From Devosia sp. (lineage in GTDB: Bacteria; Pseudomonadota; Alphaproteobacteria; Rhizobiales; Devosiaceae), in assembly GCF_014860165.1 (NCBI RefSeq), contig NZ_JACZKG010000052.1:1-64000 (forward strand): a DNA stretch of 64,000 bases, in the 5' to 3' direction. Both the position numbers and the translations under genes were made by a program. Of the stretch, positions 4,877 to 63,546 are shown piece by piece. Below the pieces are notes generated by a model. It had not been told where the DNA came from, searched no databases, and worked only from the letters and a program-made list of their open reading frames with translations. The stretch's first letter is position 1. The number at the start of each line of letters is the position of its first letter.

Positions 4877-4886
4877 TTCACGTGAA
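4877..4886. promoter_or_regulatory. parS-like site 1 (TTCACGTGAA)
   Basis: The 16-mer TGCTTCACGTGAATCA (4874-4889) matches the bacterial parS consensus TGTTTCACGTGAAACA at 14 of 16 positions. GAATC (CcrM site) overlaps the right arm. It lies between repeat A and aceA. Confidence 0.55.
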
Positions 4887-4944
4887 TCACTGAATCCGCC
4901 GTTCCACCGGACCGGCGAAGCCATGTCCCGAGGAGGAGACAAGA

Positions 4945-6228
4945 ATGCTCGACAAGCCACATTTCCCGACGCCCGATTACGCGCCCGATCGCTGGCGCAA
5001 TATCGCCCGCACCTATAGCCAGACCGATGTGGCGCGCCTTTCGGGTTCCCTGCCGATCCGCCATACCCTGGCGGAGAACGGCGCCAAGCGGCTGTGGGAA
5101 CTCCTCCACACCGAGGATTTCGTGCCAACCCTGGGCACGTTCACCGGCAACCAGGCGGTGCAGCAGGTCAAGGCCGGGCTCAAGGCCATTTATCTGAGCG
5201 GCTGGCAGGTGGCGGCCGATGCCAATAGTTCGGGCAACATGTATCCCGACCAGAGCCTTTACCCGGTCGACAGCGTCCCCAGCGTGGTCAAGCGCATCAA
5301 CAAGGCGCTGCAGCGCGCCGACCAGATCCAGACCATGGAACAGGCCGAAGGCATTGCCACGACCGATCTCGATTTCTTCGTGCCCATCATAGCCGATGCC
5401 GAAGCCGGCTTTGGCGGTTCCCTCAACGCCTTCGAGCTGATGAAGGCCATGATCGAGGCCGGCGCCGCGGCGGTGCATTTCGAGGATCAGCTCGCCTCCG
5501 AGAAGAAATGCGGCCATCTGGGCGGCAAGGTGCTGGTGCCGACCAGCCAGTTCATCCGCACGCTCAATGCCGCCCGGTTGGCCGCCGACGTCATGGGCGT
5601 GCCCACGCTGATCATGGCGCGGACCGATGCGGAAGCGGCGCGGCTGATCACCTCGGATATCGATCCCTATGACGCGCCCTTCGTTACTGACGAGCGGACG
5701 CCGGAGGGCTTTTACAAGCTCAAGGGCGGCATCGACGCGGCTATTGCCCGCGGCATCGCCTATGCGCCCTATGCCGACCTCATCTGGTGCGAGACATCAA
5801 AGCCGGATCTGGCCGAGGCCAGGAAGTTCGCCGAGGCGGTGCGCAAGGTGCATCCGGAGCAGATGCTGGCCTATAATTGCTCGCCCAGCTTCAACTGGGC
5901 CAAGCATATGGACGAGGCTGCCATGGCCAGCTTCCAGCGCGAAATTGCCGCCATGGGCTACAAGTACCAGTTCATCACGCTGGCGGGCTTCCACAATCTC
6001 AGCCTCACCACGTTCGAACTGGCCCGGGCCTATAAGGAAGACGGCATGGCAGGCTATTCGCGGCTGCAGCAGGCCGAGTTTGCCGCCGAGGCGCACGGCT
6101 TTTCGGCGGTCCGGCACCAGCGCGAAGTGGGCACCAGCTATTTCGACGCGGTCTCGATGGCGGTGAGCGAAGGCAAGAGCGCCACCACCGCCATGGGCGA
6201 GAGCACCGAGACGGCGCAGTTCCACTGA
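4945..6228 (+). CDS. aceA: Isocitrate lyase
   Basis: A 427-aa protein with full-length match to bacterial isocitrate lyase, which cleaves isocitrate to glyoxylate and succinate in the glyoxylate shunt. The active-site signature KKCGH is at residues 187-191, with catalytic Cys189. [19 protein letters not shown]-like ([10 protein letters not shown]) and NCSPSFNW motifs are all present. The start has a strong ribosome binding site (gaggaggag). The ScfR/RamB-type regulator 640 bp upstream is its likely controller. No malate synthase is seen in the window. Confidence 0.97.
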
Positions 6229-6237
6229 GGCGTAGCC

Positions 6238-6366
6238 ACCTCTCCCTTTGGGGGAGAGGTGGCGCCAAACCGACGGGTGAGGGGGCCTTATTACCAGTCT
6301 GGCGAAGGGGAAGGCCCCCTCACCCGACCCGAAGACGGGTCGACCTCTCCCCCAAGGGAGAGGTGG
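6238..6366. repeat. Long inverted repeat B between convergent genes
   Basis: The left arm at about 6240-6289 (CTCTCCCTTTGGGGGAGAGG then GGGTGAGGGGGCCTT) and the right arm at 6310-6366 (AAGGCCCCCTCACCC then CTCTCCCCCAAGGGAGAG) are inverted. Each arm also folds on itself. The element fills the gap between aceA and the convergent CSD-DUF1294 gene and may act as a bidirectional terminator. Confidence 0.75.
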
Positions 6367-6372
6367 GGAAGC

Positions 6373-7011
6373 CTACCCGGACACCCAGCCGAACAGCGCC
6401 CCCAGCCAGCCGAAGGCCAAAGCCGCCAGGCCCAGCGTATGCAGCAGGGCGATGCCCCAGGTGGTGGCGACGAAGCGGGGCTTGACCGTCTTGTGCCGGT
6501 AGACCTCCTGCGCAGCCAGGCCGCCGATAATGCCGAAGCACAGATCGACAACGTGGAGATTGGTCTCGCTGACCCGGTATTTGCCGGTCAGGGCATAGAG
6601 CTTGTCGAAACGGTAGAGCAGCGCCGAGCCTGCGCCCATGGCGGCATAGAGCAGGCCGATCCATTGCGGCGCCCGATCGGTGCCGATGGCCCACAGAATC
6701 AGCAGCGTCATCAGGGTGGCCGCCGCCGTGCGCAGGCCGAGCTTGTAGCGCGACACCCCGGTTGCGGGGCGCTTGACCTCGCGCAGCGTTGCAGGGCGTG
6801 GCGTGGGGTTGGTGCTGGCGATGGTTACATCCACGGCCGAAAGCCGCCCCTTGCGGCCGGTTGTGGTGGCGAATTCGAGACTATCCCCCAGCCGCGGCCG
6901 TGCGCCGGCTATGCTGGAAATGTGGACATAGTAATCCCGCCCCGTGTCATCCCGCACGAAGCCATAACCGCCCTTGTTGTTCCACTGGATCAGTTCACCC
7001 GATCGACGCAT
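6373..7011 (-). CDS. Cold-shock domain / DUF1294 membrane protein
   Basis: A 212-aa fusion. Residues 1-65 are a cold-shock nucleic-acid-binding domain (KGGYGFVRDD resembles RNP1, YYVHISSI resembles RNP2). A basic linker follows, then DUF1294 with about four hydrophobic segments (LMTLLILWAIG, IGLLYAAMGAGSALLY, VVDLCFGIIGGLAAQ, IALLHTLGLAALAFGWLGA). It is probably an inner-membrane protein with an RNA/DNA-binding domain on the cytoplasmic side. The physiological role of the family is not known. Confidence 0.85.
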   Translation of the reverse strand: MRRSGELIQWNNKGGYGFVRDDTGRDYYVHISSIAGARPRLGDSLEFATTTGRKGRLSAVDVTIASTNPTPRPATLREVKRPATGVSRYKLGLRTAAATLMTLLILWAIGTDRAPQWIGLLYAAMGAGSALLYRFDKLYALTGKYRVSETNLHVVDLCFGIIGGLAAQEVYRHKTVKPRFVATTWGIALLHTLGLAALAFGWLGALFGWVSG

Positions 7012-7147
7012 CGTTCATCCGCTGACACCTCACCATGACCAATATGAGGCAGTGGTTAAGCAGATATGACGGGGCCAACAAATGGTTGATCGTCAATCGA
7101 CGATGGTGTTAACCTGACGGCCTGCTGAACAGATCATTGCTGCTGCC

Positions 7148-8266: not shown

Positions 8267-8272
8267 GGCGGA

Positions 8273-8282
8273 TTCACGTGAA
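8273..8282. promoter_or_regulatory. parS-like site 2 (TTCACGTGAA)
   Basis: GGATTCACGTGAAACA (8270-8285) matches the parS consensus at 14 of 16 positions. GATTC overlaps the left arm. It starts 6 bases after the cfa stop. Confidence 0.6.
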
Positions 8283-8286
8283 ACAC

Positions 8287-8307
8287 TTATCCACAGGCTT
8301 ATGCACA
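8287..8307 (+). other. Two direct DnaA-box sequences
   Basis: TTATCCACA (8287-8295) is a perfect DnaA box. TTATGCACA (8299-8307) is the same orientation with one mismatch, 12 bases further on. They begin 4 bases after parS-like site 2, in the gap between convergent genes. Confidence 0.55.
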
Positions 8308-8327
8308 GGCGGCGGCGGGACCGCTCG

Positions 8328-8546: not shown

Positions 8547-8558
8547 GCGGCGGCCTTG

Positions 8559-10534: not shown

Positions 10535-10645
10535 CGCCCATGCCCCAAGCCCTGAACCAGCCTAGCAAAGCCATCAGGCCATCACAAGAACGTAAAGCGA
10601 ACGAAGTATGACCTGTTAACCACGCGGCTTGCCACAAAGGTAAAC

Positions 10646-16591: not shown

Positions 16592-17444
16592 AGACCTCCT
16601 TGCGCTTGAGCCCGAATTTATCAGCCACCTCGTCTACTGCGGCCCGCAGGGGCTGGTCGGCCATGGCGGCCAGCAGCGCCGCCTGCCAGTCGGCTGCATC
16701 GGGTGCTGCGGCTTCGGCGGCGCCGGCCACGACGATAACGGCCTCGCCCCGGGTCTCGGTATCGGCAAATTGCACGGCCAGTTCAGGCAGCGTGCCGCGA
16801 TGCACGCGCTCGAAGCGCTTGGTCAGTTCCAATGCTACTGCGGCCTGCCGCTCGCCCCACAGTTCCGCCATCGCCGCCAGAGTATCGTCGAGCCGACGCG
16901 GACTTTCGTAGAAGACCAGCGTTTCACGTGAATCGCTCAGTGCCTTGAGTGCATTGAGCCGCGCGCCGGCCTTGGGCGGCAGGAAACCGTGGAACGCAAA
17001 GGCATCGGTGGGCAGGCCCGCCACCACGAGCGCCGATAGGAGAGCCGAGGCGCCGGGAATGGGAAAGACCGGCTGGCCGGCCTCAGCCATGGCCCGGATC
17101 AGCGGAAAGCCGGGATCGGACAGCAAGGGCGTGCCGGCATCGGAAATCAGCGCAATCGCTGCGCCACCCGCGATCCGACTGACGATCTCCTCCGCCTTGG
17201 CCCGCTCATTATGCTCATGCAGCGCGATACGGCGGCCTCTGATGCCATAGTGATCCAGCAGCCGCGCCGACATGCGGGTGTCTTCGCAGAGGATCACCGA
17301 GGCGGCGGCCAGCGTCTCCAGCGCCCTTATGGTGATGTCGCGCAGGTTGCCGATGGGGGTGGCGACGACATAGAGGCCGGGCGCCAGCGGCGGGGCGGGG
17401 AAGGCGGTTCCGGCGATGAAATAGCCCGAATTGGTGTCGTTCAT
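16557..17444 (-). CDS. rsmI: 16S rRNA (cytidine1402-2'-O)-methyltransferase
   Basis: A 295-aa tetrapyrrole-methylase-fold protein that 2'-O-methylates C1402 of 16S rRNA with SAM. Characteristic motifs are GLYVVATPIGNLRDIT, CEDTR, ALISDAGTPLLSDPG, PIPGASA and FHGFLPPK. A parS-like site lies inside the gene (16923-16932), where it encodes Asp-Ser-Arg-Glu. Confidence 0.95.
   Translation of the reverse strand: MNDTNSGYFIAGTAFPAPPLAPGLYVVATPIGNLRDITIRALETLAAASVILCEDTRMSARLLDHYGIRGRRIALHEHNERAKAEEIVSRIAGGAAIALISDAGTPLLSDPGFPLIRAMAEAGQPVFPIPGASALLSALVVAGLPTDAFAFHGFLPPKAGARLNALKALSDSRETLVFYESPRRLDDTLAAMAELWGERQAAVALELTKRFERVHRGTLPELAVQFADTETRGEAVIVVAGAAEAAAPDAADWQAALLAAMADQPLRAAVDEVADKFGLKRKEVYDAALALKAEK
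16923..16932. promoter_or_regulatory. parS-like site 3, inside rsmI
   Basis: CGTTTCACGTGAATCG matches parS at 13 of 16 positions. GAATC overlaps the right arm. The rsmI frame reads it as GAT TCA CGT GAA. Confidence 0.5.
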
Positions 17445-23727: not shown

Positions 23728-23742
23728 TCTCATCAGGAGCGT

Positions 23743-23752
23743 TTCACGTGAA
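23743..23752. promoter_or_regulatory. parS-like site 4
   Basis: CGTTTCACGTGAATCC matches parS at 13 of 16 positions. GAATC overlaps the right arm, and its AT runs into the stem of the grpE terminator. Confidence 0.5.
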
Positions 23753-23780
23753 TCCCCGCGCAAGCGGGGATTTTTGTTTT
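23752..23780 (+). terminator. Rho-independent terminator of grpE
   Basis: ATCCCCGC, loop GCAA, then GCGGGGAT and a T-rich tail (TTTTGTTTT). It begins inside the right arm of parS-like site 4. Confidence 0.85.
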
Positions 23781-30736: not shown

Positions 30737-30794
30737 CTGTCTTACTCCGCCGAGACCCTCGGGCGAGACCCGGGGGTGAGCGATGGCGATGCGT

Positions 30795-30804
30795 TTCACG
30801 TGAA
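30795..30804. promoter_or_regulatory. parS-like site 5
   Basis: The same 16-mer as site 4, CGTTTCACGTGAATCC, with GAATC overlapping the right arm. It lies in the 173-bp gap before the HSL-like gene. Confidence 0.5.
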
Positions 30805-30909
30805 TCCATCCCCGGCACCGTGACAGGTGCCGCAAAATGGGCGCAATGGCGCCCAACTCCCTCCCGGTTTTCGCGGTCCAAGTGAGGCTCACGAATCCGC
30901 GAGGCCACC

Positions 30910-36655: not shown

Positions 36656-37419
36656 CCCGCTTTTCCGCCTGCATCGAAATGCTGTTCGTGCCTGAAAGTG
36701 CCGATCCGGCCGAGCGGATCCGGCTCGCCGCGCGTGCAGGCCTCGACGCGGTGGAATTCTGGCTATGGTCCAACAAGGATCTCGACGCCATCGAGCGGGC
36801 GCTGGACGAGACCGGCGTCACCCTGGCCGGCATCGTGGCCGAACCCTTTGCCGAGCTGACGCGCGAGACCGACCACGAGCGCTTCCTGCGCGGCCTCGAA
36901 CAGAGCCGCGACGTGGCCCGGCGCCTGGGCGCCCCGGTGCTGATCTGCCAGTCCGGCCCGCTGCTTGCGGGTATCGAGCGGGCCCGCCAGCATGACGGGT
37001 TGACCCTGGCCATGGCGCGCTCGGCCGATATCCTTGCTGGTTCCGGTGTGCGGCTGGGGCTCGAGCCGCTCAACGACCGGGTGGATCACCCGGGCTATTA
37101 TCTCACGAGCTCGGCAGAAGCCTTCGCCATCGTCGATGCGGTCAACCGGCCCGAGATCGGACTGACCTATGACCTCTACCATTCCATGGTGATGGGCGAA
37201 GACCCCCAGACCGTGGCCGGCGGCCATCTTGAGCGCATCTTCCATGTGCACCTGGCCGACCATCCCGGTCGCAACCAGCCGGGCAGCGGCGCGCTCGACC
37301 TGGCGTCCCAACTGCGCTGGCTGGATGGCCTTGGCTATGATGGCTTTGTTGGCCTCGAATATCGGCCGACCGGCAGCACGGCCGATGCGCTGGCGCAGAC
37401 CTGGGCGAGCCTGGCCTAG
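36652..37419 (+). CDS. Hydroxypyruvate isomerase-like TIM-barrel protein
   Basis: A 255-aa xylose-isomerase-like TIM barrel (FSACIEMLF at the start, AGLDAVEFWLWSNKD, LGLEPLND, LTYDLYHSMVMGED, HVHLADHPGRNQPGSG, GFVGLEYRP). This matches the Hyi family that interconverts hydroxypyruvate and tartronate semialdehyde, although other sugar isomerases share the motifs. Its ATG overlaps the pyrF stop. Confidence 0.82.
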   Translation: MTRFSACIEMLFVPESADPAERIRLAARAGLDAVEFWLWSNKDLDAIERALDETGVTLAGIVAEPFAELTRETDHERFLRGLEQSRDVARRLGAPVLICQSGPLLAGIERARQHDGLTLAMARSADILAGSGVRLGLEPLNDRVDHPGYYLTSSAEAFAIVDAVNRPEIGLTYDLYHSMVMGEDPQTVAGGHLERIFHVHLADHPGRNQPGSGALDLASQLRWLDGLGYDGFVGLEYRPTGSTADALAQTWASLA

Positions 37420-37422
37420 CGG

Positions 37423-38427
37423 TCAGCCCGCCAGCCCATGCACACGGGTCAGGTCCTCGAGGTCGAGCTGCGGCCTTGCGCCGATATGGCTGATCACCTC
37501 GGAGGCCGCCAGGCACCCGGTCTTGAGCGCCGATTCCAGCGTCTGGCCGCGGGCCATGCCGAGCAGGAAGCCCGAGGCGAAGAGGTCGCCGGCGCCGGTA
37601 GCGTCGACCACCTTGTCGACATTGAAGGCCGGCACCGAGGTCACTTCGCCATTATAGACCGCCATGGCGCCATCGGCGCCCATGGTGATGGCGGCCAGTT
37701 CGGCATCCTTGGCGATCTGGCGCACTGCCTCGCCCAGGTCGTCGGTCTGATAGAGCGATTTCAGCTCATGCACATTGGCAAAGACATAGTCGACGGTCTG
37801 GGAGCGAATCAGATCGAGGAATTCGGCGCGGTAGCGATCGACGCAGAACGGGTCTGACAGCGTAAAAGCCGCGGCGCGCTCGTTCTTGTGCGCGTAATGG
37901 GCGGCCAGCACGAAGGCCTTCTTGGCTTCGACCGGGTCCCAGAGGAAGCCTTCCATATAGGTGATGGCCGCCGAGCCGATCTCGTCGGGGCTGATATCGC
38001 GCTCGGTCAGTTCATGGCAGGCGCCCAGATAGGTGTTCATCGTGCGCTCGCCATCTTCGCTCAAAAAGATCATCGAGCGGGCGGTGAGGGCGCCGTTCTT
38101 GAGGCGGCTGGTATTGTAGTGCACGCCGATGGCGTCGAGATCGGCCTCGAATACATCGCCCAGCAGGTCATCGGCCACCTTGCCGACAAAGGCAGCGCGG
38201 CCGCCCAGCGAGGCCACACCGGCCGCCGTATTGGCGGCGCTGCCGCCCGATATCTGCTGCCGGCCCAGCGGCATCTTGCCATAGAGGTCTTCGGCCCGAT
38301 CGGTGTCGATCAGGTGCATGATGCCTTCCTGCATCCCCTCCCGCTCGATGAACCCGGCCTCGACCGGCGCGATGATGTCGACGATCGCATTGCCAATGGT
38401 GAGAACGTCGAAGCGGGTCTGGGTCAT
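37423..38427 (-). CDS. PfkB-family carbohydrate kinase, adenosine kinase-like
   Basis: A 334-aa ribokinase-fold protein. It opens TRFDVLTIGNAIVDIIA, has GGSAANTAAG and the catalytic DATGAGDLFASGF near the C-terminus. The overall pattern fits rhizobial adenosine kinases that recycle adenosine to AMP. The start MTQTRFD is chosen on family length; a GTG 15 bases upstream is possible and neither has a clear ribosome binding site. Confidence 0.88.
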   Translation of the reverse strand: MTQTRFDVLTIGNAIVDIIAPVEAGFIEREGMQEGIMHLIDTDRAEDLYGKMPLGRQQISGGSAANTAAGVASLGGRAAFVGKVADDLLGDVFEADLDAIGVHYNTSRLKNGALTARSMIFLSEDGERTMNTYLGACHELTERDISPDEIGSAAITYMEGFLWDPVEAKKAFVLAAHYAHKNERAAAFTLSDPFCVDRYRAEFLDLIRSQTVDYVFANVHELKSLYQTDDLGEAVRQIAKDAELAAITMGADGAMAVYNGEVTSVPAFNVDKVVDATGAGDLFASGFLLGMARGQTLESALKTGCLAASEVISHIGARPQLDLEDLTRVHGLAG

Positions 38428-38521
38428 GAGGAGGTCCGGCACAGGGAAAAGCCGTCAGCCGGTTTAGAGGATGAAAGAAAGCTCGGCAACCTCAAGCGCG
38501 CGTTGCACCCCTGTCCAACGC

Positions 38522-39085
38522 CTAGTGCCTGTCGATGATCTGGGTGATCAGCGCCTCGATGTCCTCGCCGGCCTCGATGGCGATCTGGCCATCGAGCAGC
38601 AGCACGGCCAGGCCATGTACCCGCGCCCAGGCAGCCAGCGCCGCCACGCGGCCGGCCCTGGTATCGCCGCCGCTGACCCGGCGGAGGGTGGCAAAGGCCG
38701 CGTCGGCGGCCATGCGCAGGCCGGGGCGATTGTCGCGGCGCAGCTGCGGCGAGAACATCAGGCGAAACAGCGCCGCATTGTGGAGCGCGAAGAGCACATA
38801 GGTCTTGCCCATGGCCGACAGCAGATCGGGGGGATTGGCGGCAGCAACCTCGTCCATGGCCCGCGTGAAGCGCTGGAAACCGGTCACGGCCAGGGCTTCG
38901 AGCAGTGCCGCCCGGCTGTCGAAATGCCGGTAGGGCGCGGCGGGGGACACCCCGACGGCCCGTGCGAGGTCGCGCAGGCCGAGCCCGGCTTCGCCGTCGC
39001 GCTCCAGGATCACCAGCGCCGCCTCCAGCAGCGCGTTGCGCAGATCGCCATGGTGATAGGGCGCATTCTGACCAGATGTTGACAT
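38522..39085 (-). CDS. TetR/AcrR-family regulator
   Basis: A 187-aa repressor. The N-terminal helix-turn-helix covers about residues 10-57 (LRNALLEAALVILERDG, GLRDLARAVGVSPAAPYRHFDSRAAL); the C-terminus is an all-helical ligand domain. It is divergent from a DUF2214 membrane gene. An inverted repeat in the 60-bp gap is the probable operator for both. Confidence 0.9.
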   Translation of the reverse strand: MSTSGQNAPYHHGDLRNALLEAALVILERDGEAGLGLRDLARAVGVSPAAPYRHFDSRAALLEALAVTGFQRFTRAMDEVAAANPPDLLSAMGKTYVLFALHNAALFRLMFSPQLRRDNRPGLRMAADAAFATLRRVSGGDTRAGRVAALAAWARVHGLAVLLLDGQIAIEAGEDIEALITQIIDRH

Positions 39086-39115
39086 TGCTTACTTCTGCGT
39101 GAATATATGTAAGCA
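39086..39115. promoter_or_regulatory. Probable TetR operator
   Basis: A TGCTTAC-N16-GTAAGCA inverted repeat in the gap between the TetR gene and the DUF2214 gene. Its AT-rich centre is suitable for overlapping divergent promoters. Confidence 0.55.
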
Positions 39116-39145
39116 GCGATAACATATGACGTAGAGGACCTGCAA

Positions 39146-39601
39146 ATGGATATCGACCTGCTCCTGGCCATTGGCCATCACCTGGTGGTATTCCTGTTGG
39201 TAGGGATTCTCGCCGCAGAATTCGCCGTGCTGCGTCCGGGGCTCTCGGGCTCGCGCATCGGGCAGCTGGCGCGCATCGACGCCGCCTATGGTGCCGTGGC
39301 GGCGCTGGTCATCCTGGTGGGCGTCTTCCGGGTGATTTTCGGCGCCAGCGGCTGGGAATATTACGTGGCAAACTACGTGTTCTGGGCCAAGATGGCCGCG
39401 TTCCTCGTCATGGGCCTCCTCACCATCCCGCCGACCCTGGCCATCCGGCGCTGGCTGAGGGCGAGCCAAAGCGATGTCGCCTATCGGGTGCCGGAAGCCG
39501 AAATCGCCTCGAGCCGGCGCTACATCCACCTGCAGGCAGGCGTGCTGGTGCTGATCCCCATCTTCGCCGCCGCCATGGCGCGGGGCTATGGTATCGCCTA
39601 G
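39146..39601 (+). CDS. DUF2214 integral membrane protein
   Basis: A 151-aa protein with four hydrophobic helices and a paired His near the N-terminus (LAIGHHLVVFLLVG). LARIDAAYGAVAALVILVGVFRV and NYVFWAKMAAFL are typical of DUF2214. The function is unknown. It is the likely target of the divergent TetR regulator and is convergent with nth; the two stop regions overlap by 4 bases. Confidence 0.85.
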   Translation: MDIDLLLAIGHHLVVFLLVGILAAEFAVLRPGLSGSRIGQLARIDAAYGAVAALVILVGVFRVIFGASGWEYYVANYVFWAKMAAFLVMGLLTIPPTLAIRRWLRASQSDVAYRVPEAEIASSRRYIHLQAGVLVLIPIFAAAMARGYGIA

Positions 39602-40272
39602 CTCCCCTTGGGCGCCGGTGTCTTGGGCTCGAAGCGGCACCATTCGCGGATGGCGCAGCGCCAGCATTCGGGCTTTCTGGCCTTGCAGACATAGCGGCCG
39701 TGCAGGATCAGCCAGTGATGGGCATGCAGCAGGTATTGCGGCGGTATCACCTTGAGCAGCTGCTGTTCCACCGCCAGCGGCGTAGCCGCCGGCGCCAGGC
39801 CGGTGCGATTGCTGACTCGGAACAGGTGGGTGTCGACGGCAATGGTGGGCTGCTTGAAGAAGATGTTGAGCACCACATTGGCGGTCTTGCGACCGACGCC
39901 GGGCAGGGCTTCCAGCGCCTCGCGGTCGTCAGGCACCTCGCCGCCATGCCGCTCGATCAGCAGCTGGCTGAGGGCAAAGACATTCTTGGCCTTGCCGCGA
40001 TAAAGGCCGATGGTCTTGACCAGCTCGGTGATCTGCTCGACGCCCAGCGCCACCATGGCCTGTGGCGAAGGCGCCAGCTCGAACAGGCGTTTGGTGGCCT
40101 TGTTCACCCCGGCATCGGTGGCCTGGGCGGACAGCACCACGGCGACGAGCAGGGTGAAGGCATTGACATAGTCGAGTTCGCCCTTGGGTTCGGGCTCGAT
40201 GTCATGAAAGCGCGCGAAGATCGCCTCGACATCGGCCTTGGACAGCGCCTTCACTTTTTTTGGCACGGCCAT
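39598..40272 (-). CDS. nth: Endonuclease III
   Basis: A 224-aa DNA glycosylase/AP lyase that removes oxidised pyrimidines. It has the helix-hairpin-helix LPGVGRKTANVV with the catalytic Lys, the catalytic Asp in AVDTHLFRVSNR, and the C-terminal iron-sulfur motif C-x6-C-x2-C-x5-C (CKARKPECWRCAIREWC). The start MAVPKK is chosen from the family N-terminus and gagaga just upstream. A much longer open frame upstream is antisense to the DUF2244 gene. Confidence 0.95.
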   Translation of the reverse strand: MAVPKKVKALSKADVEAIFARFHDIEPEPKGELDYVNAFTLLVAVVLSAQATDAGVNKATKRLFELAPSPQAMVALGVEQITELVKTIGLYRGKAKNVFALSQLLIERHGGEVPDDREALEALPGVGRKTANVVLNIFFKQPTIAVDTHLFRVSNRTGLAPAATPLAVEQQLLKVIPPQYLLHAHHWLILHGRYVCKARKPECWRCAIREWCRFEPKTPAPKGS

Positions 40273-40320
40273 TCTCTCGCCCCTGATTCTGCGCCTATAG
40301 TCAGTGTTCAAGAGTTCGCC

Positions 40321-40806
40321 ATGCCAATGCAAGCCACAACCACCACGCCGCTCTTTGCTGCCGCGCTGAAGCCGGATCGCTCGCCGCGCCTGATTGGCGG
40401 CTGGCTGGCGTTTGCCGTGGCCGGCATGGCGGCCACGCCGCTGGCCGTGCTGGTTCCCGGTGTGCTGCTTCCGGCGACAGTTGCCTTCGGCATTGGCGGG
40501 ATCGCGCTGGCGGTCCTGTCGGTGCGCCAGTCGCGGCGGCGCCGTATCGCCCAGCAGGTGACGCTGTGGGCCGACCAACTTGAGATCGCCACCATCGACC
40601 ACCAGGGCGCGCGCCTGCTGCGCCGGTTCGATCCCAAGACGGTGCGGCTGGTGCTTGATCGCGACGAAAACGAAAAGGCGGTTCGCATGCGCCTGCGCTC
40701 GGGCAAGGACGAATTCGAGCTCGGGGCCTTTCTCAAGCCCGAGGACCGATCGAGCCTGGCGAAGGCCTTTGGTACCGCCCTGCGCCGCGCCCGGCAGGCG
40801 GCCTGA
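40321..40806 (+). CDS. DUF2244 membrane protein
   Basis: A 161-aa protein with two adjacent hydrophobic helices (residues about 25-65) followed by a cytoplasmic PH-like beta domain (QVTLWADQLEIATID, VRLVLDRDENEKAVRMRLRSG). DUF2244 genes are commonly divergent from nth in Rhizobiales from memory. No biochemical role is known. Confidence 0.8.
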   Translation: MPMQATTTTPLFAAALKPDRSPRLIGGWLAFAVAGMAATPLAVLVPGVLLPATVAFGIGGIALAVLSVRQSRRRRIAQQVTLWADQLEIATIDHQGARLLRRFDPKTVRLVLDRDENEKAVRMRLRSGKDEFELGAFLKPEDRSSLAKAFGTALRRARQAA

Positions 40807-40877
40807 ACCGTCAAAAGCGGGTCGCTTCGCGCGCCCGACCCTCCTAGACAGACACCCAACAACCAATGGGTGCCACG

Positions 40878-41747
40878 ATGAACCAGATCACGCACATGAC
40901 CCCCGCGACGGACTATGACACGATCCGTGCCGCCATCCGCTACCTCAGCGAAAATGGCCCCGACGTGGCAGACCTCAGCCGCTTCGCGCGCACGCTCGGC
41001 CTTTCCGAACGGCAGCTGACGGACCTCTTTCGTCGCTGGTGCGGCCTCACGCCCAAGAGCTTCTCCCAAGCCGTGGCGCTCGACCATGCCAAGAGCCTGC
41101 TGCGATCAAAGGAAAGCGTGCTCGACACCACCTATGAGGTCGGCCTCAGCTCCACCTCGCGCCTGCATGACCTGTTCGTCACCTATGAGGCCATGCCGCC
41201 CGGCATTTTCCGGGCCGGCGGCGCCGGCATGGACATGGTGTGGGGGGCGGCGCCATCGCCCTTCGGCATGGCCGTGGCGACGGCGACCGATTACGGCATG
41301 TCGGGCCTCGGCTTTGCCGATGGCGAAACCTCGATCAGCGAGGCCTTCCAGGATCTCGCCAACCGCTGGCCCAATGCACGCTTTGTCAGGGACGACGCGC
41401 GCGTCGCGCCGCTGATTGCCCAGGCCTTCGATCCGGCGCGCTGGTCACCCGAGCATCCGGTGAGGGTCGTACTGATCGGTACCGATTTCGAGGTGAAGGT
41501 CTGGGAGACGCTGCTCAAGATTCCCTGCGGCAAGGCCACGACCTATCAGAGCGTTGCCAACCATATTGGCCGGCCCACCGCGGCGCGCGCCGTGGGCGCC
41601 GCCGTGGGCAAGAACCCGATTTCCTTCGTCGTCCCCTGCCACCGGGTGGTGGGCACGTCAGGCGCGCTTACCGGCTATCACTGGGGCGTGCCGCGCAAGC
41701 GCGCCATCCTGGGCTGGGAAGCCGGGGTGATCTCGGCGGCGCATTAG
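40878..41747 (+). CDS. AraC-type HTH / methylated-DNA-protein cysteine methyltransferase
   Basis: A 289-aa Ada-like fusion lacking the N-terminal Zn methylphosphotriester domain. Residues about 10-105 are an AraC-type HTH (LSERQLTDLFRRWCGLTPKSF, YEVGLSSTSRLHDLF). Residues about 125-285 are an Ogt domain with the acceptor motif PCHRV (Cys before His). It removes O6-alkylguanine damage and may sense it. The start MNQITH has a weak gggtg upstream; an ATG 12 bases earlier has none. Confidence 0.88.
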   Translation: MNQITHMTPATDYDTIRAAIRYLSENGPDVADLSRFARTLGLSERQLTDLFRRWCGLTPKSFSQAVALDHAKSLLRSKESVLDTTYEVGLSSTSRLHDLFVTYEAMPPGIFRAGGAGMDMVWGAAPSPFGMAVATATDYGMSGLGFADGETSISEAFQDLANRWPNARFVRDDARVAPLIAQAFDPARWSPEHPVRVVLIGTDFEVKVWETLLKIPCGKATTYQSVANHIGRPTAARAVGAAVGKNPISFVVPCHRVVGTSGALTGYHWGVPRKRAILGWEAGVISAAH

Positions 41748-41748
41748 T

Positions 41749-41758
41749 TTCACGTGAA
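41749..41758. promoter_or_regulatory. parS-like site 6
   Basis: AGTTTCACGTGAATCG begins one base after the TAG stop of the Ada-like gene. GAATC overlaps the right arm. Confidence 0.5.
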
Positions 41759-41795
41759 TCGCGGCTAGTCGCACACGCTCCTACACCCACCGGGC

Positions 41796-41880
41796 GTCAC
41801 CCTCGGGCTTGACCCGAGGGCTCTTCAGTTAGCTGAACGTCCTGTAAGTACAGTGCCCTCGGGTCAAACCCGAGGGTGAC
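41796..41880. repeat. Long inverted repeat D
   Basis: GTCACCCTCGGG-CTTGACCCGAGGG (left, 41796-41820) and CCCTCGGGTCAAACCCGAGGGTGAC (right arm, 41856-41880, each arm self-complementary) flank a 35-base spacer. It lies between the convergent Ada-like gene and gpmA and may form a cruciform or terminate both. Confidence 0.75.
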
Positions 41881-41920
41881 GTGAGTGTGGGGGGACGCAC
41901 GTGGTCTCCCAGGCCGCAGC

Positions 41921-42535
41921 CTAAAGCTCCAACCGCTCCACCAGCTTCCCATCCGGTCCGATCCGGTAAACCGTCGGCTGGCCGGTAGCGATTTCGCGCT
42001 TCAGGATCTGTTCGGGCGTCAGGTTCTCGATGGCCATCACCATGGCGCGCAGCGAATTGCCATGGGCGGCGACCAGCACGGTCTTGCCAGCCTTGAGCTG
42101 CGGCACGATTTCGGCCTCGTAATAGGGCAGGGTGCGCGCCGCGGTATCCTTGAGGCTTTCGCCGCCCGGGGGCGGCACGTCATAGCTGCGGCGCCAGATA
42201 AGCACTTGTTCCTCGCCCCATTTTGCGCGGGCATCATCCTTGTTGAGGCCGCTGAGGTCGCCATAGTCGCGCTCGTTGAGAGCAACGTTCCTGATGATGG
42301 TAACATTGTCGATGCCCATTTCCTCGAGCATCAGGTCGAGCGTGTGCTGGGCGCGGCGCAGGGCAGAGGTGTAGTAGAGATCGGGGACAATGCCCTTGGC
42401 CTTGAGGGCCTTGCCGGTGGCGCGGGCTTCCTCGATCCCCTGCTCGGTCAGGTTCGGGTTGCGCCAGCCCGTGAACAGGTTCTGGAGGTTCCACTCGCTC
42501 TGGCCGTGGCGCACGAGGATCAGGGTACCGGTCAT
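41921..42535 (-). CDS. gpmA: 2,3-bisphosphoglycerate-dependent phosphoglycerate mutase
   Basis: A 204-aa glycolytic enzyme, shorter than the E. coli form as is usual in alphaproteobacteria. The catalytic motif is [10 protein letters not shown], with [35 protein letters not shown] and [10 protein letters not shown]. It is downstream of dapB by 50 bp on the same strand. Confidence 0.95.
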
Positions 42536-42585
42536 CAAAGCATCCTTGCTGGTTGGTCTGGTTGCGCCTTGCTGGCGGCGCTGGG

Positions 42586-47110: not shown

Positions 47111-47841
47111 CACGCAGCGGCCCTCAGCATGGCCAGTGCTTCACGTGAATCAATGCGGCCGTCATAGAGGGCGCGGCCGGAAATGGCCCCTTCGAGGATC
47201 TGGTAGTCCGGTTGCACCATGCGCTCGATATCGGCCATCGAGGCGAGACCGCCCGAGGCGATGACCGGGATGGAAGTCGAGCGCGCCAGCTCCAGCGTCG
47301 AGGGCCAGTTGATGCCAGCGAGTATGCCGTCGCGGTCGATATCGGTATAGATGATGGCCGCCACCCCAGCGCCTTCGAAGCGCTTGGCCAGTTCGATGAT
47401 TGATAGTTCCGACGTCTCGGCCCAGCCCTCAACCGCCACCATGCCGCCCTTTGCGTCGGTGCCGACGGCCACCTGGCCGGGCCACTTGCGGGCGGCTTCC
47501 TTCACCAGATCAGGATCGCGCACCGCCACGGTGCCCAAGATGACGCGCGCAAGGCCCTTGTCCAGCCAGCTCTCGATATGGGCAAGCGTGCGGATGCCAC
47601 CGCCCAGCTGCACCGGGAACTTCACCGTCTTGAGGATGGCCTCCACCGCCGCGCCATTGACGCTCTCGCCGGCAAAGGCGCCGTTGAGGTCGACGACATG
47701 GAGATACTCAAAGCCCTGATCCTCGAAGCTCTTCGCCTGCGCCGCCGGATCGTCGTTGAACACGGTCGCCTGGTCCATGTCGCCCAGCTTGAGGCGCACG
47801 CATTGGCCGTCCTTGAGGTCGATGGCGGGGAAGAGAATCAC
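47110..47841 (-). CDS. hisA: ProFAR isomerase
   Basis: A 243-aa TIM-barrel enzyme for the fourth step of histidine synthesis ([53 protein letters not shown]). The start is set at the GTG overlapping the hisH stop (GTGA) with gaggtgg upstream; a GTG three codons earlier is possible. A parS-like site lies in its last 15 codons, read as Asp-Ser-Arg-Glu. Confidence 0.94.
47140..47149. promoter_or_regulatory. parS-like site 7, inside hisA
   Basis: TGCTTCACGTGAATCA, the same 16-mer as site 1. The duplicated hisA end at 46681-46716 stops in the middle of this palindrome (after TTCA). Confidence 0.55.
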
Positions 47842-58721: not shown

Positions 58722-58817
58722 GGGGACGATGTTTTCCACACTGTCATCCCCAGCTCAAGGGCCAGCCTGTGACAATGACTCATGGTTTTGCCGCTCGGCC
58801 CGATTTGTTCGACTTGG

Positions 58818-58832
58818 TTACCGAATGATTAA
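58818..58832. promoter_or_regulatory. CtrA box, one mismatch (TTAC-N7-TTAA)
   Basis: Left-most of three CtrA-like sites in the putative origin. Confidence 0.45.
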
Positions 58833-58961
58833 CACCTGGACTCGGTGAGCGGTCCACGGAAGCGGTGGGATAGGTCTGGGGATAAACCCAGACGCACCGA
58901 ACCTGGCCGCCAAGCGGTTTTGCACATGCCAATCCGAATCATTGACTCCGGAGTCCGCCCG

Positions 58962-58976
58962 TTAAGGTCTGCTTAA
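58962..58976. promoter_or_regulatory. CtrA box (perfect TTAA-N7-TTAA)
   Basis: TTAAGGTCTGCTTAA, continuing into CCAT. A further TTAA follows at 58980. Confidence 0.65.
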
Positions 58977-59019
58977 CCATTAAGGCCGGGGCGGGGCTCG
59001 CTATGATTCACAGGGGTCG

Positions 59020-59034
59020 TTAACACCTCGTTTA
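59020..59034. promoter_or_regulatory. CtrA box, one mismatch (TTAA-N7-TTTA)
   Basis: TTAACACCTCGTTTA, followed by CCAT exactly as in the perfect box 58 bases away. Confidence 0.5.
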
Positions 59035-59164
59035 CCATCGCCCTGCGCGGTTGTGCCGCCACGAGGGCGATTGTGGACGGCGCTGAATTGGCCCAAAACA
59101 CCGCCATGATAATACTGATACGAAGTCAGAAAGACTCTTTAGGGGTTTTGAAGGGAAGGTTGAC

Positions 59165-60190
59165 GTGACCCATAAGCCCCTCTTGGCAACCGTGCTTGGC
59201 CAGCGCCAGGAACGGCCTCCGCTCTGGATCATGCGCCAGGCGGGCCGCTACCTGCCTGAATACCGTGAGGTCAGGACTCGGGCGACGAACTTCCTCGAGC
59301 TCTGCTATACGCCCGATCTCGCCACCGAGGTGTCGCTGCAGCCATTGCGCCGTTTCGATCTCGATGCCGCGATCCTGTTCTCCGACATCCTGGTCATTCC
59401 CGACGCGCTCGGCCAGTCGGTGCGCTTTGAGGCTGGAGAGGGTCCTGTCCTTGATCCGGTTGATGCCGGCAGCATCGCCGGGCTGGGGAAGGAGATGGAT
59501 CCGCTGGATCACCTGGCGCCGGTGCTGGAGACCGTGCGACGCCTGCGGGCGGCCATCGCACCCGATAAGACGCTGATCGGCTTCTGCGGCTCTCCCTGGA
59601 CCGTGGCGACCTATATGATTGGCGGTAAGGGGTCACCCGACCAGGCCGCGGCCCGATTGTTTGCCCTGCGGCATCCGGAAGCTTTTGCGGCTCTGCTGGA
59701 TGTGCTGGTCAAGACCAGCATTGATTATCTGGTCGCGCAGCTCGAGGCCGGCGCCGATGTGGTGCAGCTGTTCGAGAGCTGGGCGCTCAATCTCGACGAT
59801 GCAGCCTTTTCTAGCCATGTCATCGAACCAAACCGGCGGATCGTTGCCGGGGTGCGGGCCCGGGTGCCCAATGCGCCCATCATCGGCTTTCCGCGGGGCG
59901 CTGCCGGCAACCTGGCGCGCTATGCGCAGGAAACGGGGGTCAATGCGCTCGGGTTGGACTACGCGACGCCGCTTGATTCTGCCCGGACCTTTTCCCCGGG
60001 CCTGCCGGTGCAGGGTAATCTCGATCCATTGCGGCTGGTGGCGGGTGGTGCCCAGATGGACGAGCGCATCGACGCCATCATCGCGGCCTTTGCCGACCGC
60101 CCGCATATCTTCAATCTGGGCCACGGCATCGTGCCGGAAACGCCGATCGCGCATGTCGAGCGGCTGGTGGCGCGGGTCAAGAACCGCTAG
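59165..60190 (+). CDS. hemE: Uroporphyrinogen decarboxylase
   Basis: A 341-aa enzyme converting uroporphyrinogen III to coproporphyrinogen III. Motif PPLWIMRQAGRYLPEYR, YTPDLATEVSLQPLRRF, the FSDILVIPDALG strand, GFCGSPWTVATYM and GNLDP are present. The GTG start has gggaagg upstream. It flanks the putative origin. Confidence 0.97.
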   Translation: MTHKPLLATVLGQRQERPPLWIMRQAGRYLPEYREVRTRATNFLELCYTPDLATEVSLQPLRRFDLDAAILFSDILVIPDALGQSVRFEAGEGPVLDPVDAGSIAGLGKEMDPLDHLAPVLETVRRLRAAIAPDKTLIGFCGSPWTVATYMIGGKGSPDQAAARLFALRHPEAFAALLDVLVKTSIDYLVAQLEAGADVVQLFESWALNLDDAAFSSHVIEPNRRIVAGVRARVPNAPIIGFPRGAAGNLARYAQETGVNALGLDYATPLDSARTFSPGLPVQGNLDPLRLVAGGAQMDERIDAIIAAFADRPHIFNLGHGIVPETPIAHVERLVARVKNR

Positions 60191-60234
60191 AGCCGCGAGG
60201 GGCAAAGCGGCCATGAACTGTCGGGGAGTTCTGC

Positions 60235-60663: not shown

Positions 60664-60683
60664 GGGCGGCGAGGAGGGGCTGT

Positions 60684-60693
60684 TTCACGTGAA
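60684..60693. promoter_or_regulatory. parS-like site 8
   Basis: TGTTTCACGTGAATCT (60681-60696) matches parS at 14 of 16 positions, with GAATC overlapping the right arm. It lies 20 bp after hemJ, in the gap before rho. Confidence 0.6.
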
Positions 60694-60864
60694 TCTGGGC
60701 AGGGCGCGACGGTTTCATCCTTGAAACTGCTCCCGGATCGCGCTACATGCCTAGCCAACGCATCCCAAATCTAGCCGACCTCCCCGGTCGCTGCGCGGTG
60801 CCTACCCCTCCCAGATATATCGCCTTCCTGACGATTACCGCTTCCCAATAGGGTCTCCCGCTAC

Positions 60865-62130
60865 ATGCAGAATATGAAGCTCAGCGAGCTCAAGGCCAAG
60901 TCCCCGGCCGAACTCCTGGTGTTCGCTGAAGAACACGAGGTCGAGAATGCCTCGACCATGCGCAAACAGGAATTGATGTTTGCCATTCTCAAGGAACTGG
61001 CCGCCCAGGAAGTCGACATTACCGGCGAAGGCGTCGTCGAAGTCCTCCCTGATGGTTTCGGTTTCCTGCGTTCCCCGGACGCCAACTATCTCCCGGGCCC
61101 CGACGACATCTATGTCAGTCCATCCCAGATTCGTCGCTTCGGTCTCAGAACCGGCGACACGGTCGAAGGCCAGATTCGGTCTCCCAAGGATGGCGAGCGC
61201 TACTTTGCGCTGCTCAAGGTCAACACCATCAACTTCGAAGATCCCGAGGCGGTCCGCCACAAGGTCAACTTCGACAACCTGACCCCGCTCTATCCCGAAG
61301 AACGGCTCCGCATGGAGCTGCCCGATCCGACGCTGAAGGATCGTTCGGCCCGCCTGCTCGATCTCGTTGCCCCGTTGGGCAAGGGTCAGCGTGCGCTGAT
61401 TGTTGCGCCACCGCGTACCGGTAAGACGGTATTGTTGCAGAATATTGCACAATCGATCGCCACCAATCACCCCGAATGCTATCTGATCGTGTTGCTGATC
61501 GACGAGCGGCCGGAAGAAGTGACAGACATGCAGCGCTCGGTGCGCGGTGAAGTCATCTCCTCGACCTTTGACGAGCCGGCTTCGCGTCACGTCCAGGTCG
61601 CCGAAATGGTGATCGAAAAGGCCAAGCGCCTGGTCGAACACAAGCGCGACGTGGTCATCCTGCTCGATTCGATCACCCGCCTCGGCCGCGCCTACAACAC
61701 CGTCGTGCCGAGCTCCGGCAAGGTGCTGACCGGCGGCGTGGACGCCAATGCGCTGCAGCGCCCGAAGCGCTTCTTTGGTGCTGCGCGCAATATCGAGGAT
61801 GGCGGCTCGCTGACTATCATTTCAACGGCGCTGATCGATACCGGCTCGCGCATGGATGAAGTGATCTTCGAAGAGTTCAAGGGCACCGGCAACTCGGAAA
61901 TCATCCTTGACCGCAAGGTCGCCGACAAGCGCATCTTCCCGGCGCTCGACATCACCAAGTCGGGTACGCGCAAGGAAGAGCTGCTGGTCGAGCCGGACAT
62001 CCTCAAGAAGATGTATGTGCTGCGCCGCATCCTCAATCCGATGGGGACGATCGACGCGATGGAATTCCTGATGGACAAGGTCCGCCAGACCAAGACAAAT
62101 TCCGACTTCTTCGATTCGATGAATACCTGA
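60865..62130 (+). CDS. rho: Transcription termination factor Rho
   Basis: A 421-aa hexameric RNA helicase. The N-terminal RNA-binding domain ([42 protein letters not shown]) is followed by the ATPase with Walker [13 protein letters not shown], Walker [13 protein letters not shown] and the Q/R loops. Full length. An ATG three codons downstream is an alternative start. Confidence 0.98.
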
Positions 62131-62159
62131 TCGCCAGCGCGGCGATTGACGACACTCCC

Positions 62160-62189
62160 GAGAGCGACATGCACCAGCGTGTCGCTCTC
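62160..62189 (+). terminator. Hairpin between rho and mnmE
   Basis: A perfect 10-bp stem GAGAGCGACA / TGTCGCTCTC with a 10-base loop. The T tract after it is weak (TGCTTTC). It starts 30 bases after the rho stop and ends 16 bases before mnmE. Confidence 0.5.
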
Positions 62190-62205
62190 TGCTTTCGGAG
62201 AACCC

Positions 62206-63498
62206 ATGATGAGCGGCGATACGATCGTGGCGCTGTCCTCTGGAGCCCCACCCTCCGGCGTGGCGGTCATCCGCCTCTCCGGACCTGCCACGGGCAGGAT
62301 TCTCCAGGACATAGCCGGCACCATCCCCGAGCCGCGGCGGCTGACGCTGCGGCCCATCGGCCGCGAGTCGATGCTTGATCGCGGCCTCGTCGCCTGGTTT
62401 CCGGCACCCCACAGCTTTACCGGCGAAGACTGCGCCGAGTTGCAGGTGCATGGCTCCCCGGCCGGGGTCCGCTCGATCATCAAGCTCATTACCAGCAAGG
62501 GGGCCCGCCTTGCGGAGGCCGGCGAGTTCACCCGGCGGGCCTTTGAGAATGGCAAGCTCGACCTGGTGGAAATCGAGGGCCTGGGCGACCTCTTGGAAGC
62601 CGAGACCGAGAACCAGCGACGCCAGGCCTTGGCCCGGTTCGAAGGGGGCCTGTCGCAACGGATCGACGGCTGGCGCGATCAATTGCTTGATCTGCGGGCC
62701 GAGATCGAGGCTCGGCTGGACTTTTCAGACGAGGGCGATGTCGGCGATACCCTGCCCGAGGACTTCGGCCGCAGCCTTACGGCATTGCGCAATGACATCG
62801 CCATGGCGCTGGCCTCGGTCGAGCATGGCCGCGTCGTTCGCGAAGGTATCCGCGTGGCACTGGCGGGGCCGCCGAATGCCGGAAAATCCAGTCTGCTCAA
62901 TGCCTTGGCACAATCGGACATCGCCATCGTGACGGAGGAGGCCGGGACGACCCGCGACGTGCGCGAGGTGCCGCTCGACATCAACGGTCAGCTCTATATC
63001 CTGCTCGACCTGGCCGGCCTGCGCGAGACCGACAGCAAGGCCGAGGCTGAAGGCGTACGCCGGGCTCGGCAGGCCATCGACCAGGCCGATATCGTCCTGT
63101 GGCTCAGCGCTCCGGATCTGCCAGCGGTGGAAATTCCGGAGACTGACAACCGCCACATCCATGTCAGCACCAAGCGTGACCTGGGCAGGGTGACCGGTGC
63201 CGATATTGCCGTGTCCGCGCAGAGCGGCGAAGGGCTCGCCGAGCTGCTGGGGCGAATTGAGCAACTCGGCCAGACGCTGTCGAGCGGGGAGCCATCCCTG
63301 CTCAGCCGGGAGCGGGACCGCATAGCGCTACAGAGCGCCATCGAGGCCCTGGAGGCTTCGGCGAAACAGCTGGCAATGCCTGAACTGGCAGCCGAGAGCC
63401 TGCGGCTGGCATCGCAGGCGCTGGAGCGCCTGGTCGGTCGGCTGGATGCGGAGCGGGTGTTGGACCGCCTGTTTACCAGCTTCTGCATCGGCAAGTGA
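62206..63498 (+). CDS. mnmE: tRNA modification GTPase MnmE
   Basis: A 430-aa GTPase that, with MnmG, installs the cmnm5U modification in wobble uridines. It has the N-terminal folate domain (DTIVALSSG, SFTGEDCAELQVHG, AGEFTRRAFENGKLDL). The inserted G domain carries AGPPNAGKSSLLN and DLAGLRETDS. It ends in the conserved CIGK. The first of two adjacent ATG codons has ggag 6-7 bases upstream. Confidence 0.96.
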   Translation: MMSGDTIVALSSGAPPSGVAVIRLSGPATGRILQDIAGTIPEPRRLTLRPIGRESMLDRGLVAWFPAPHSFTGEDCAELQVHGSPAGVRSIIKLITSKGARLAEAGEFTRRAFENGKLDLVEIEGLGDLLEAETENQRRQALARFEGGLSQRIDGWRDQLLDLRAEIEARLDFSDEGDVGDTLPEDFGRSLTALRNDIAMALASVEHGRVVREGIRVALAGPPNAGKSSLLNALAQSDIAIVTEEAGTTRDVREVPLDINGQLYILLDLAGLRETDSKAEAEGVRRARQAIDQADIVLWLSAPDLPAVEIPETDNRHIHVSTKRDLGRVTGADIAVSAQSGEGLAELLGRIEQLGQTLSSGEPSLLSRERDRIALQSAIEALEASAKQLAMPELAAESLRLASQALERLVGRLDAERVLDRLFTSFCIGK

Positions 63499-63508
63499 TT
63501 CACGTGAA
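63499..63508. promoter_or_regulatory. parS-like site 9
   Basis: TGATTCACGTGAAACA (63496-63511) matches parS at 15 of 16 positions and overlaps the mnmE stop codon. GATTC covers the left arm. Confidence 0.75.
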
Positions 63509-63536
63509 ACACGGCCGTGATCGCGGTCGGAATTGA

Positions 63537-63546
63537 TTCACGTGAA
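63537..63546. promoter_or_regulatory. parS-like site 10
   Basis: The same 16-mer as site 9 (63534-63549), 38 bases further on, between mnmE and mnmG. Confidence 0.75.

What the first reader, a model, noticed from the sequence alone, without database searches (positions are those of the whole stretch)
4877..63546. Ten parS-like palindromes spread over 59 kb, each overlapped by one CcrM (GANTC) site
TTCACGTGAA occurs ten times (4877, 8273, 16923, 23743, 30795, 41749, 47140, 60684, 63499, 63537) where about 0.06 is expected by chance. In every copy one side continues as TC, giving GAATC/GATTC overlapping the arm; the other side is usually TT or CT. The shared form is thus an asymmetric (T/C)TTCACGTGAATC rather than the symmetric parS. 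Eight sites lie at gene 3' ends or gaps and two inside genes. This could couple ParB loading or origin segregation to the methylation state after fork passage, and the sites extend far wider than the few kb usual for parS. I do not know this overlap to be described.
Basis: partly seen in the sequence, partly recalled or inferred. Interest (0 to 1): 0.82.

Follow-up and report, generated by a model that had tools for sequence, protein, structure and literature searches.

The report
Methylation-marked chromosome-segregation sites in Devosia
A soil bacterium of the genus Devosia marks about 70 kb around its likely replication origin with 14 DNA anchor sites for the chromosome-separating protein ParB, and 12 of them carry exactly one DNA-methylation site in one arm, a feature kept across the genus that may tie chromosome separation to the cell's replication clock.

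Summary
The genome holds 15 TTCACGTGAA: 14 lie on this contig over 70.6 kb around hemE and parAB; one elsewhere lacks parS-like flanks. Twelve of the 14 have exactly one GATTCACG arm (a CcrM site, GANTC); two beside parAB are symmetric. The organism is a Devosia. These are parS sites of its chromosomal ParABS.

The asymmetry is maintained. In 37 Devosiaceae genomes I counted 294 GATTCACGTGAAAC, 51 GTTTCACGTGAAAC, 50 GCTTCACGTGAATC, 3 GCTTCACGTGAAAC and no GATTCACGTGAATC. Before rho, all 37 loci that have a site (of 50) keep the same asymmetric 14-mer and orientation, although the flanks are saturated. Only 11 of 337 sampled genomes of the class have the asymmetric form; 278 have parS-like sites. 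Seven known ParB DNA-contact residues are identical in lineages with and without it.

Best explanation: a parS array in which one arm, never both, is exposed to CcrM, so that ParB loading may follow replication state. That it is parS is near certain, that the A is selected is likely, that methylation is the reason is inferred. Rival: the arm tunes ParB affinity. Wide parS arrays are known; the arm pattern was not found in print in the searches named.

The parts
4875..4888 (+). parS, GCTTCACGTGAATC: C arm left, GANTC arm right; before an isocitrate lyase gene
8271..8284 (-). parS, GATTCACGTGAAAC: GANTC arm left, T arm right; 3' of a cyclopropane fatty acyl phospholipid synthase gene
   Evidence: slot found in Devosia with the same orientation (8 of 8 in the clearly assigned slot)
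8287..8307 (+). two DnaA-box-like 9-mers (TTATCCACA 8287, TTATGCACA 8299) 2 bp from the parS; TTNTCCACAG in 9 of 11 genomes examined at this slot, strict TTATCCACA in 5 of 11
16921..16934 (+). parS GTTTCACGTGAATC inside rsmI (gene on minus strand, codons DSRET)
23741..23754 (+). parS GTTTCACGTGAATC, 3' of grpE
30793..30806 (+). parS GTTTCACGTGAATC, in the gap downstream of dnaK and an ORF without family match
   Evidence: slot 10 of 10 same 14-mer
41747..41760 (+). parS GTTTCACGTGAATC, at the end of an Ada-like methyltransferase gene, before a phosphoglycerate mutase gene
47138..47151 (+). parS GCTTCACGTGAATC inside hisA (minus strand, codons DSREA)
60682..60695 (+). parS GTTTCACGTGAATC between hemJ and rho
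   Evidence: (37 of 37 sites same 14-mer, saturated flanks)
63497..63510 (-). parS GATTCACGTGAAAC; its A is the last base of the mnmE TGA stop
63535..63548 (-). parS GATTCACGTGAAAC between mnmE and mnmG
   Evidence: 37 of 37 sites in this position bin same 14-mer
58740..59164 (.). gap upstream of hemE with several GANTC and DnaA-box-like sequences: candidate oriC by analogy with other alphaproteobacteria (inferred, not shown)
   Evidence: sequence; hemE; the analogy is partly recalled (a parAB operon about 7 kb from hemE is also reported for Hyphomonas in PMC6650430, passage)
59165..60190 (+). hemE (URO-D)
60865..62130 (+). rho
62146..63498 (+). mnmE; the gene order continues outside the window as mnmG, rsmG (two parS), parA 66117-66917, parB 66927-67802, parS 67825

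Best explanation
The ten palindromes are part of a 14-site parS array of the chromosomal ParABS system of a Devosia. Shown: the sites sit round parAB and hemE, 12 of 14 have one GATTCACG arm and one GTTTCACG or GCTTCACG arm, and this form is kept at orthologous places in the family while sites with GATTC in both arms do not occur in the Devosiaceae genomes searched. Inferred: the GATTC arm is kept because CcrM methylates it. The two methyl groups would sit at base pairs 2 and 4 of one ParB half-site, while the other half-site can never be methylated. Each parS would thus pass from full to half methylation when the fork goes by and stay so until CcrM acts late in the cycle, which would tune ParB nucleation (or, the other way round, bound ParB would shield the site from CcrM) without switching the site off, as methylation of both arms might. 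My estimates: parS identity 0.97, selection on the A 0.85, CcrM as the reason 0.5, loading favoured on half-methylated sites 0.3.
For: 14 of 15 genome copies on one 84.7-kb contig with parA and parB. ParB has N, HTH and C domains and matches solved ParB chains (best 6t1f, E 6e-77). Counts in 37 genomes that I group as Devosiaceae: one-GANTC forms 344 (294 + 50), symmetric T/T 51, C/T 3, both-arm GATTC 0, where about 74 would be expected if arms combined freely (own). Rho slot: 37 of 50 usable loci have a site and all 37 are identical at all 14 positions, flanks at 0.70-0.72 mean difference. Non-coding slots, assigned by hand: 11 of 12 have exactly one GANTC arm, P about 0.003 under free combination. 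The C/A form is common but C/T is rare, so the A itself seems wanted. Contact residues G170, K171, S172, R173, N178, G201, R204 (named in PMC7383237, passages) are the same in 59 Devosiaceae, 6 T/T-only and 14 mixed ParBs, so a changed ParB contact does not explain the A. The symmetric site in rsmG has instead a GAATC 2 bp away whose Asn codon is AAT in 57 of 58 sequences, while most other printed codons outside the parS vary. CcrM is present in own and in all 8 other Devosiaceae genomes tested.
Against: No methylation or ParB-binding data. [quoted passage not shown] In coding sites and at the mnmE stop the A is also fixed by the protein or the stop codon. At the symmetric site after parB, 4 of the 6 mapped copies have no GANTC within 60 bp. 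Other families near Devosia do not show the GAATC beside their site at the corresponding distance from parB (printed contexts). Two of the 10 other sampled genomes with the asymmetric 14-mer gave no CcrM hit (G072, 70% complete; G083, 97% complete). Devosiaceae counts are not independent; the slot tests are modest (0.003; 0.009 if one extra T/T site counts as a slot; chance of no A/A among 12 slots 0.06).
Confidence: 0.5

Rival explanations
1. Affinity tuning without methylation. The A at position 2 weakens one half-site a little; Devosia uses many medium-strength sites round one or two strong symmetric ones near parAB, and two A arms are too weak to work. CcrM overlap is a by-product.
For: A symmetric site lies in rsmG, next to parA, in all 13 genomes mapped. 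Known parS sets can also have one fixed and one looser half: TGTTNCACGTGAAACA for Corynebacterium and Burkholderia (table passage of PMC7022226), GTGAAA half conserved in Caulobacter. Sites of graded affinity are known in Caulobacter (PMC5815017, passages).
Against: C at position 2 pairs with A in 50 sites but with T in only 3 of the Devosiaceae counts, which simple additive affinity does not predict. Where a site is present, T never replaces A in 37 of 37 sites of the rho slot and 37 of 37 of the second mnmG bin. ParB contact residues are unchanged. GAATC is kept beside the symmetric rsmG site.
Confidence: 0.33
2. The A is read by a third protein, such as a transcription or origin-region factor that binds the asymmetric 14-mer or its GAATC, independent of CcrM.
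For: Orientation at each slot is mostly constant; one slot is fused to DnaA-box-like sequences.
Against: Orientation differs between slots and is reversed in one genome at one slot (L173); DnaA-box-like words were found within about 60 bp of parS only at that one slot in the 13 mapped genomes. No other flanking element was searched for.
Confidence: 0.1
3. Neutral tolerance plus descent: ParB accepts A or T in one arm, and the pattern is inherited.
For: Many sites are orthologous across Devosia.
Against: Saturated flanks beside an invariant 14-mer; no A/A and almost no C/T.
Confidence: 0.05
4. Chance palindromes or an unrelated repeat.
For: None.
Confidence: 0.01

Closest known systems
Chromosomal ParABS with parS (TGTTTCACGTGAAACA and near forms; Caulobacter, Bacillus, Streptomyces)
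   Same: Core, position round parAB/hemE, ParB family and seven DNA-contact residues
   Different: 12 of 14 sites have one arm changed to GATTCACG, which makes a CcrM site; array of 70.6 kb, where most genomes sampled from the class have only a few such sites
GANTC-rich repABC origins and the 3parS region of pAMI4 (PMC9040568, PMC11514494; passages)
   Same: GANTC near centromere-like sites in alphaproteobacteria, proposed cell-cycle link
   Different: There GANTC lies in promoters or some hundred bases away, on repABC replicons with another partition system; here it overlaps the arm of chromosomal parS
GANTC sites shielded from CcrM by a bound protein (MucR, CtrA; PMC5172544, passages)
   Same: A protein site overlapping GANTC can compete with CcrM
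   Different: Promoters and MucR targets, not parS; GANTCs at the Caulobacter parS locus are mentioned there, with no overlap stated in the passages seen

Membership tests
Chromosomal parS of ParABS | Match to the parS core palindrome | tested here: met
   14 sites with G(T/A/C)TTCACGTGAA(A/T/G)C
Chromosomal parS of ParABS | Clustered near parAB and the origin | tested here: met
   14 of 15 genome copies on the parAB contig; oriC itself placed by analogy only
Chromosomal parS of ParABS | Cognate ParB with conserved parS-contact residues | tested here: met
   seven of the contact residues; Q162 was not in the printed columns
Chromosomal parS of ParABS | Binding and spreading of ParB in vivo | not testable with these tools
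   needs ChIP-seq
CcrM-controlled DNA element | GANTC present and conserved | tested here: met
   12 of 14 sites; kept across Devosiaceae
CcrM-controlled DNA element | CcrM encoded in the genome | tested here: met
   C39:81995-83125, 377 aa with RAMA domain
CcrM-controlled DNA element | Site is methylated and its state changes with replication | not testable with these tools
   needs a methylome of staged cells
CcrM-controlled DNA element | Function depends on methylation | not testable with these tools
   needs binding assays and mutants

The most novel reading that the evidence does not exclude
In Devosiaceae the centromere is marked by methylation: most parS sites are built as half-methylatable sites, with exactly one arm open to CcrM, so that the passage of the fork changes ParB loading on the two sister origins and links segregation directly to replication state.
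Probability: 0.4. Interest if true: 0.85.

Novelty: new variant of a known kind. Interest (0 to 1): 0.6.

Why it matters
How alphaproteobacteria time origin segregation to replication is, to my knowledge, not fully explained. A centromere whose sites mostly carry one, and never two, cell-cycle methylation marks would offer a direct and testable link between CcrM and ParB. Even if methylation proves irrelevant, the 'one A arm, never two' pattern over many sites is a natural experiment on how a symmetric dimer uses an asymmetric site.

Tried and rejected
Even spread round the chromosome: rejected. Changed ParB specificity: no change in the seven contact residues compared. Loss of CcrM in Candidatus Devosia symbiotica (L030), where one A arm lost its G: rejected, since a full CcrM match at 90% identity is there; the loss looks like a TGA-to-TAA stop change of mnmE (inferred from the printed site, not checked). 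Fixed orientation relative to the fork: left-side sites mostly point one way, but exceptions are conserved too, so no rule was found. Orientation kept across the g39-g44 inversion looked striking in two genomes; with 20 more stretches, four of the more distant genomes with the inverted order lack the site (L176-L179) and one genome with own's order has it reversed (L173), so separate gains are likelier. Extra GANTC near symmetric sites in general: besides rsmG, 20 Devosiaceae symmetric sites show 5.0 per kb within 20 bp against 1.94 background, too few to call; in the 36 symmetric sites of other families 2.78 within 20 bp and 8-10 per kb at 20-60 bp against 2.30, perhaps because asymmetric sites lie close by (not checked). 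GC skew to place oriC: not informative on this contig. CcrM status against the asymmetric form over the whole class was not run; the 31-genome test is weak because CcrM is so common. In one search the single T in the rsmG_TA bin is probably L030, whose rsmG1 site seems to fall into that bin through a shift of about 270 bp (my reading).

Rows dropped or not counted: one search left out two GGTTCACGTGAACC places and one GCTTCACGTGAACC place; the slot test left out the two TCTTCACGTGAAGC sites and pooled two far-right sites as one slot; one search used only Devosiaceae loci of at least 20,000 bases (50 of 60, my count from the lengths) and position bins that can hold two sites of one locus; one search compared 59 of the 60 Devosiaceae loci. 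The C/C form and most G-arm forms were not counted genome-wide. The TA, CA and TT totals are genome-wide, and not every site was placed relative to parAB. The grouping 'Devosiaceae' (L018-L077, including Pelagibacterium) is mine, from record titles and ParB identity.
Full report
What was checked. The window is the first 64,000 bases of contig C85 (84,733 bases) of a 4.46-Mb genome. The genome has 15 copies: 14 on C85, from 4877 to 75452, and one on C66. The C66 copy has G-rich flanks (GGTTCACGTGAAGG) and does not look like parS.

Anatomy. Read as 14-mers, the 14 sites are ten GTTTCACGTGAATC (in either orientation), two GCTTCACGTGAATC and two symmetric GTTTCACGTGAAAC. The first two forms contain exactly one GANTC, made by a single T-to-A change in one ParB half-site. 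The two symmetric sites lie in rsmG (65568) and just after parB (67825). Around them the gene order is hemE, hemJ, rho, mnmE, mnmG, rsmG, parA, parB (parB also). The gap before hemE has several GANTC and DnaA-box-like words and is the likely oriC by analogy with other alphaproteobacteria (the analogy is partly recalled, partly from a passage on Hyphomonas in PMC6650430). CcrM, with its RAMA domain, is on C39.

What organism. The ten best ParB matches are 92-97% identical and come from records titled Devosia or, for the best one, Alphaproteobacteria bacterium. So the genome is a Devosia or a very near relative.

How widespread. In 337 genomes drawn from the class, 278 have GWTTCACGTGAAWC, mostly a few copies each, but only 11, own included, have GATTCACGTGAAAC, and only own has more than two. 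In 50 named genomes near Devosia (36 that I group as Devosiaceae, and 14 other Hyphomicrobiales; 50 of the 80 loci), 45 have it: 36 of 36 Devosiaceae, with 1-11 copies each, and 9 of 14 others. The doubly changed form GATTCACGTGAATC is in 0 of those 50 genomes. In the class listing, which was cut, it appears once (G014), about 350 kb from that genome's symmetric pair.

The arm rule. For 37 Devosiaceae genomes (own included) the totals are T/A 294, T/T 51, C/A 50, C/T 3 and A/A 0. With free combination of arms about 74 A/A would be expected (own). These numbers are not independent, because the sites are shared by descent. Counting non-coding slots instead, assigned by hand, 11 of 12 have exactly one A arm; under free combination P is about 0.003, or 0.009 if one extra symmetric site seen in one genome (L165) counts as a slot; the chance of seeing no A/A among the 12 is 0.06. 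For the 14 other Hyphomicrobiales the totals are T/A 25, T/T 26 and A/A 0.

Selection at single sites. At the rho slot 37 of 50 usable loci have a site, and all 37 have the identical 14-mer in the same orientation, while the 19 bases on each side differ at 0.70-0.72 of comparisons, near the limit of 0.75. The second mnmG bin is equally fixed in 37 of 37 sites, with flanks at 0.62 and 0.50. So where a site is kept, neither the T of one arm nor the A of the other is free. Change is not unknown: of 22 sites in the bin after parB, 20 have T and 2 have A at position 2, and 20 have A and 2 have G at position 13; the g78/79 bin has C for T in 2 of 18. The mapping of 13 genomes shows many shared slots from about 70 kb left to 35 kb right of parB, most with the same orientation. 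The slot at g43/44 is reversed in one genome, L173.

Limits set by coding. All four coding sites in own are read in one frame as V/D-S-R-E-T/A. In rsmI, hisA and the second rsmG site the A is therefore part of an Asp codon, and at the first mnmG slot it is part of the mnmE stop. These sites do not independently show selection for the A, which is why the slot test uses non-coding slots only.

GANTC beside a symmetric site. The symmetric rsmG site has a GAATC 2 bp away and another 43 bp away in all 13 mapped genomes; in the wider list of loci the far one is missing in several and the near one in L071. In 58 sequences the Asn codon in the near one is AAT 57 times, where AAT and AAC are equally used on this contig. 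In the far one Glu is GAA in 53 of the 53 sequences that have Glu, and the Tyr two codons on is TAT in 44 of 44. Most of the other codons printed vary freely, the parS codons excepted. The printed contexts of the other families do not show this, and 4 of the 6 mapped symmetric sites after parB have no GANTC within 60 bp.

ParB. Contact residues named in PMC7383237 (passages) were compared by alignment against solved chain 6t1f, which I take from memory to be the Caulobacter ParB; my column numbers run 10 lower than the paper's, matched by the G-K-S-R stretch. G170, K171, S172, R173, N178, G201 and R204 are invariant in 59 Devosiaceae, 6 lineages without the asymmetric form (five by whole-genome count, one, L078, only within its locus) and 14 mixed ones. 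A change at these residues thus does not explain the changed site; other parts of ParB do differ between the groups.

Literature. Searches: parS+ParB+CcrM+GANTC gave 9 papers, of which I read passages of five and did not open four. The asymmetric 14-mer and 12-mer as text gave two papers with unrelated titles (listing only). parS+hemimethylated+'ParB binding'+methylation gave none. Devosia+parS gave 167 papers, of which ten were listed, none with a title on chromosome segregation. So I found no description of the overlap in these searches; the library lacks most subscription papers, and sequences printed in figures or supplements were not searched. Caulobacter GANTCs close to the origin were estimated half-methylated in about 80% of cells (PMC3973325, passages), which is what makes the idea attractive.

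Conclusion. The array is an ordinary ParABS centromere in kind, unusual in number for its class, and truly unusual in carrying exactly one CcrM site in most of its parS sites. Methylation-tuned ParB loading is my best guess; affinity tuning is the serious rival. Both can be separated by the binding assays named.

Noticed in passing
window 8271-8307: A parS is joined to two DnaA-box-like words (TTATCCACA, TTATGCACA); the nearer one appears as TTNTCCACAG in 9 of 11 Devosia genomes at this slot (strict TTATCCACA in 5 of 11), about 58 kb from parB in own. TTWTNCACA words are rare in these regions (0.035 per kb).
   Followed up: partly
L009 3445-4092 (rsmG, outside the window): Two GAATC words 2 and 43 bp before the symmetric parS are largely conserved at synonymous positions; the farther one reads GAATCCTAT in many genomes and could be part of a promoter for parAB (inferred).
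   Followed up: partly
genome G232 of the class sample: 79 copies of GWTTCACGTGAAWC in a 1.8-Mb genome with no full-length CcrM match and 16 weak methyltransferase matches.
   Followed up: no
genomes G005, G204, G213, G074 of the class sample: 13, 13, 18 and 14 copies of GWTTCACGTGAAWC with no GATTCACGTGAAAC among them; G005 gave no CcrM hit.
   Followed up: no
window 16921-16934 and 47138-47151; rsmG outside the window: The four coding parS sites in own all use one reading frame, giving V/D-S-R-E-T/A in RsmI, HisA and RsmG.
   Followed up: partly
window about 37400-42540 (g39-g44): A block that lies in opposite orientation in some Devosia genomes relative to others.
   Followed up: partly
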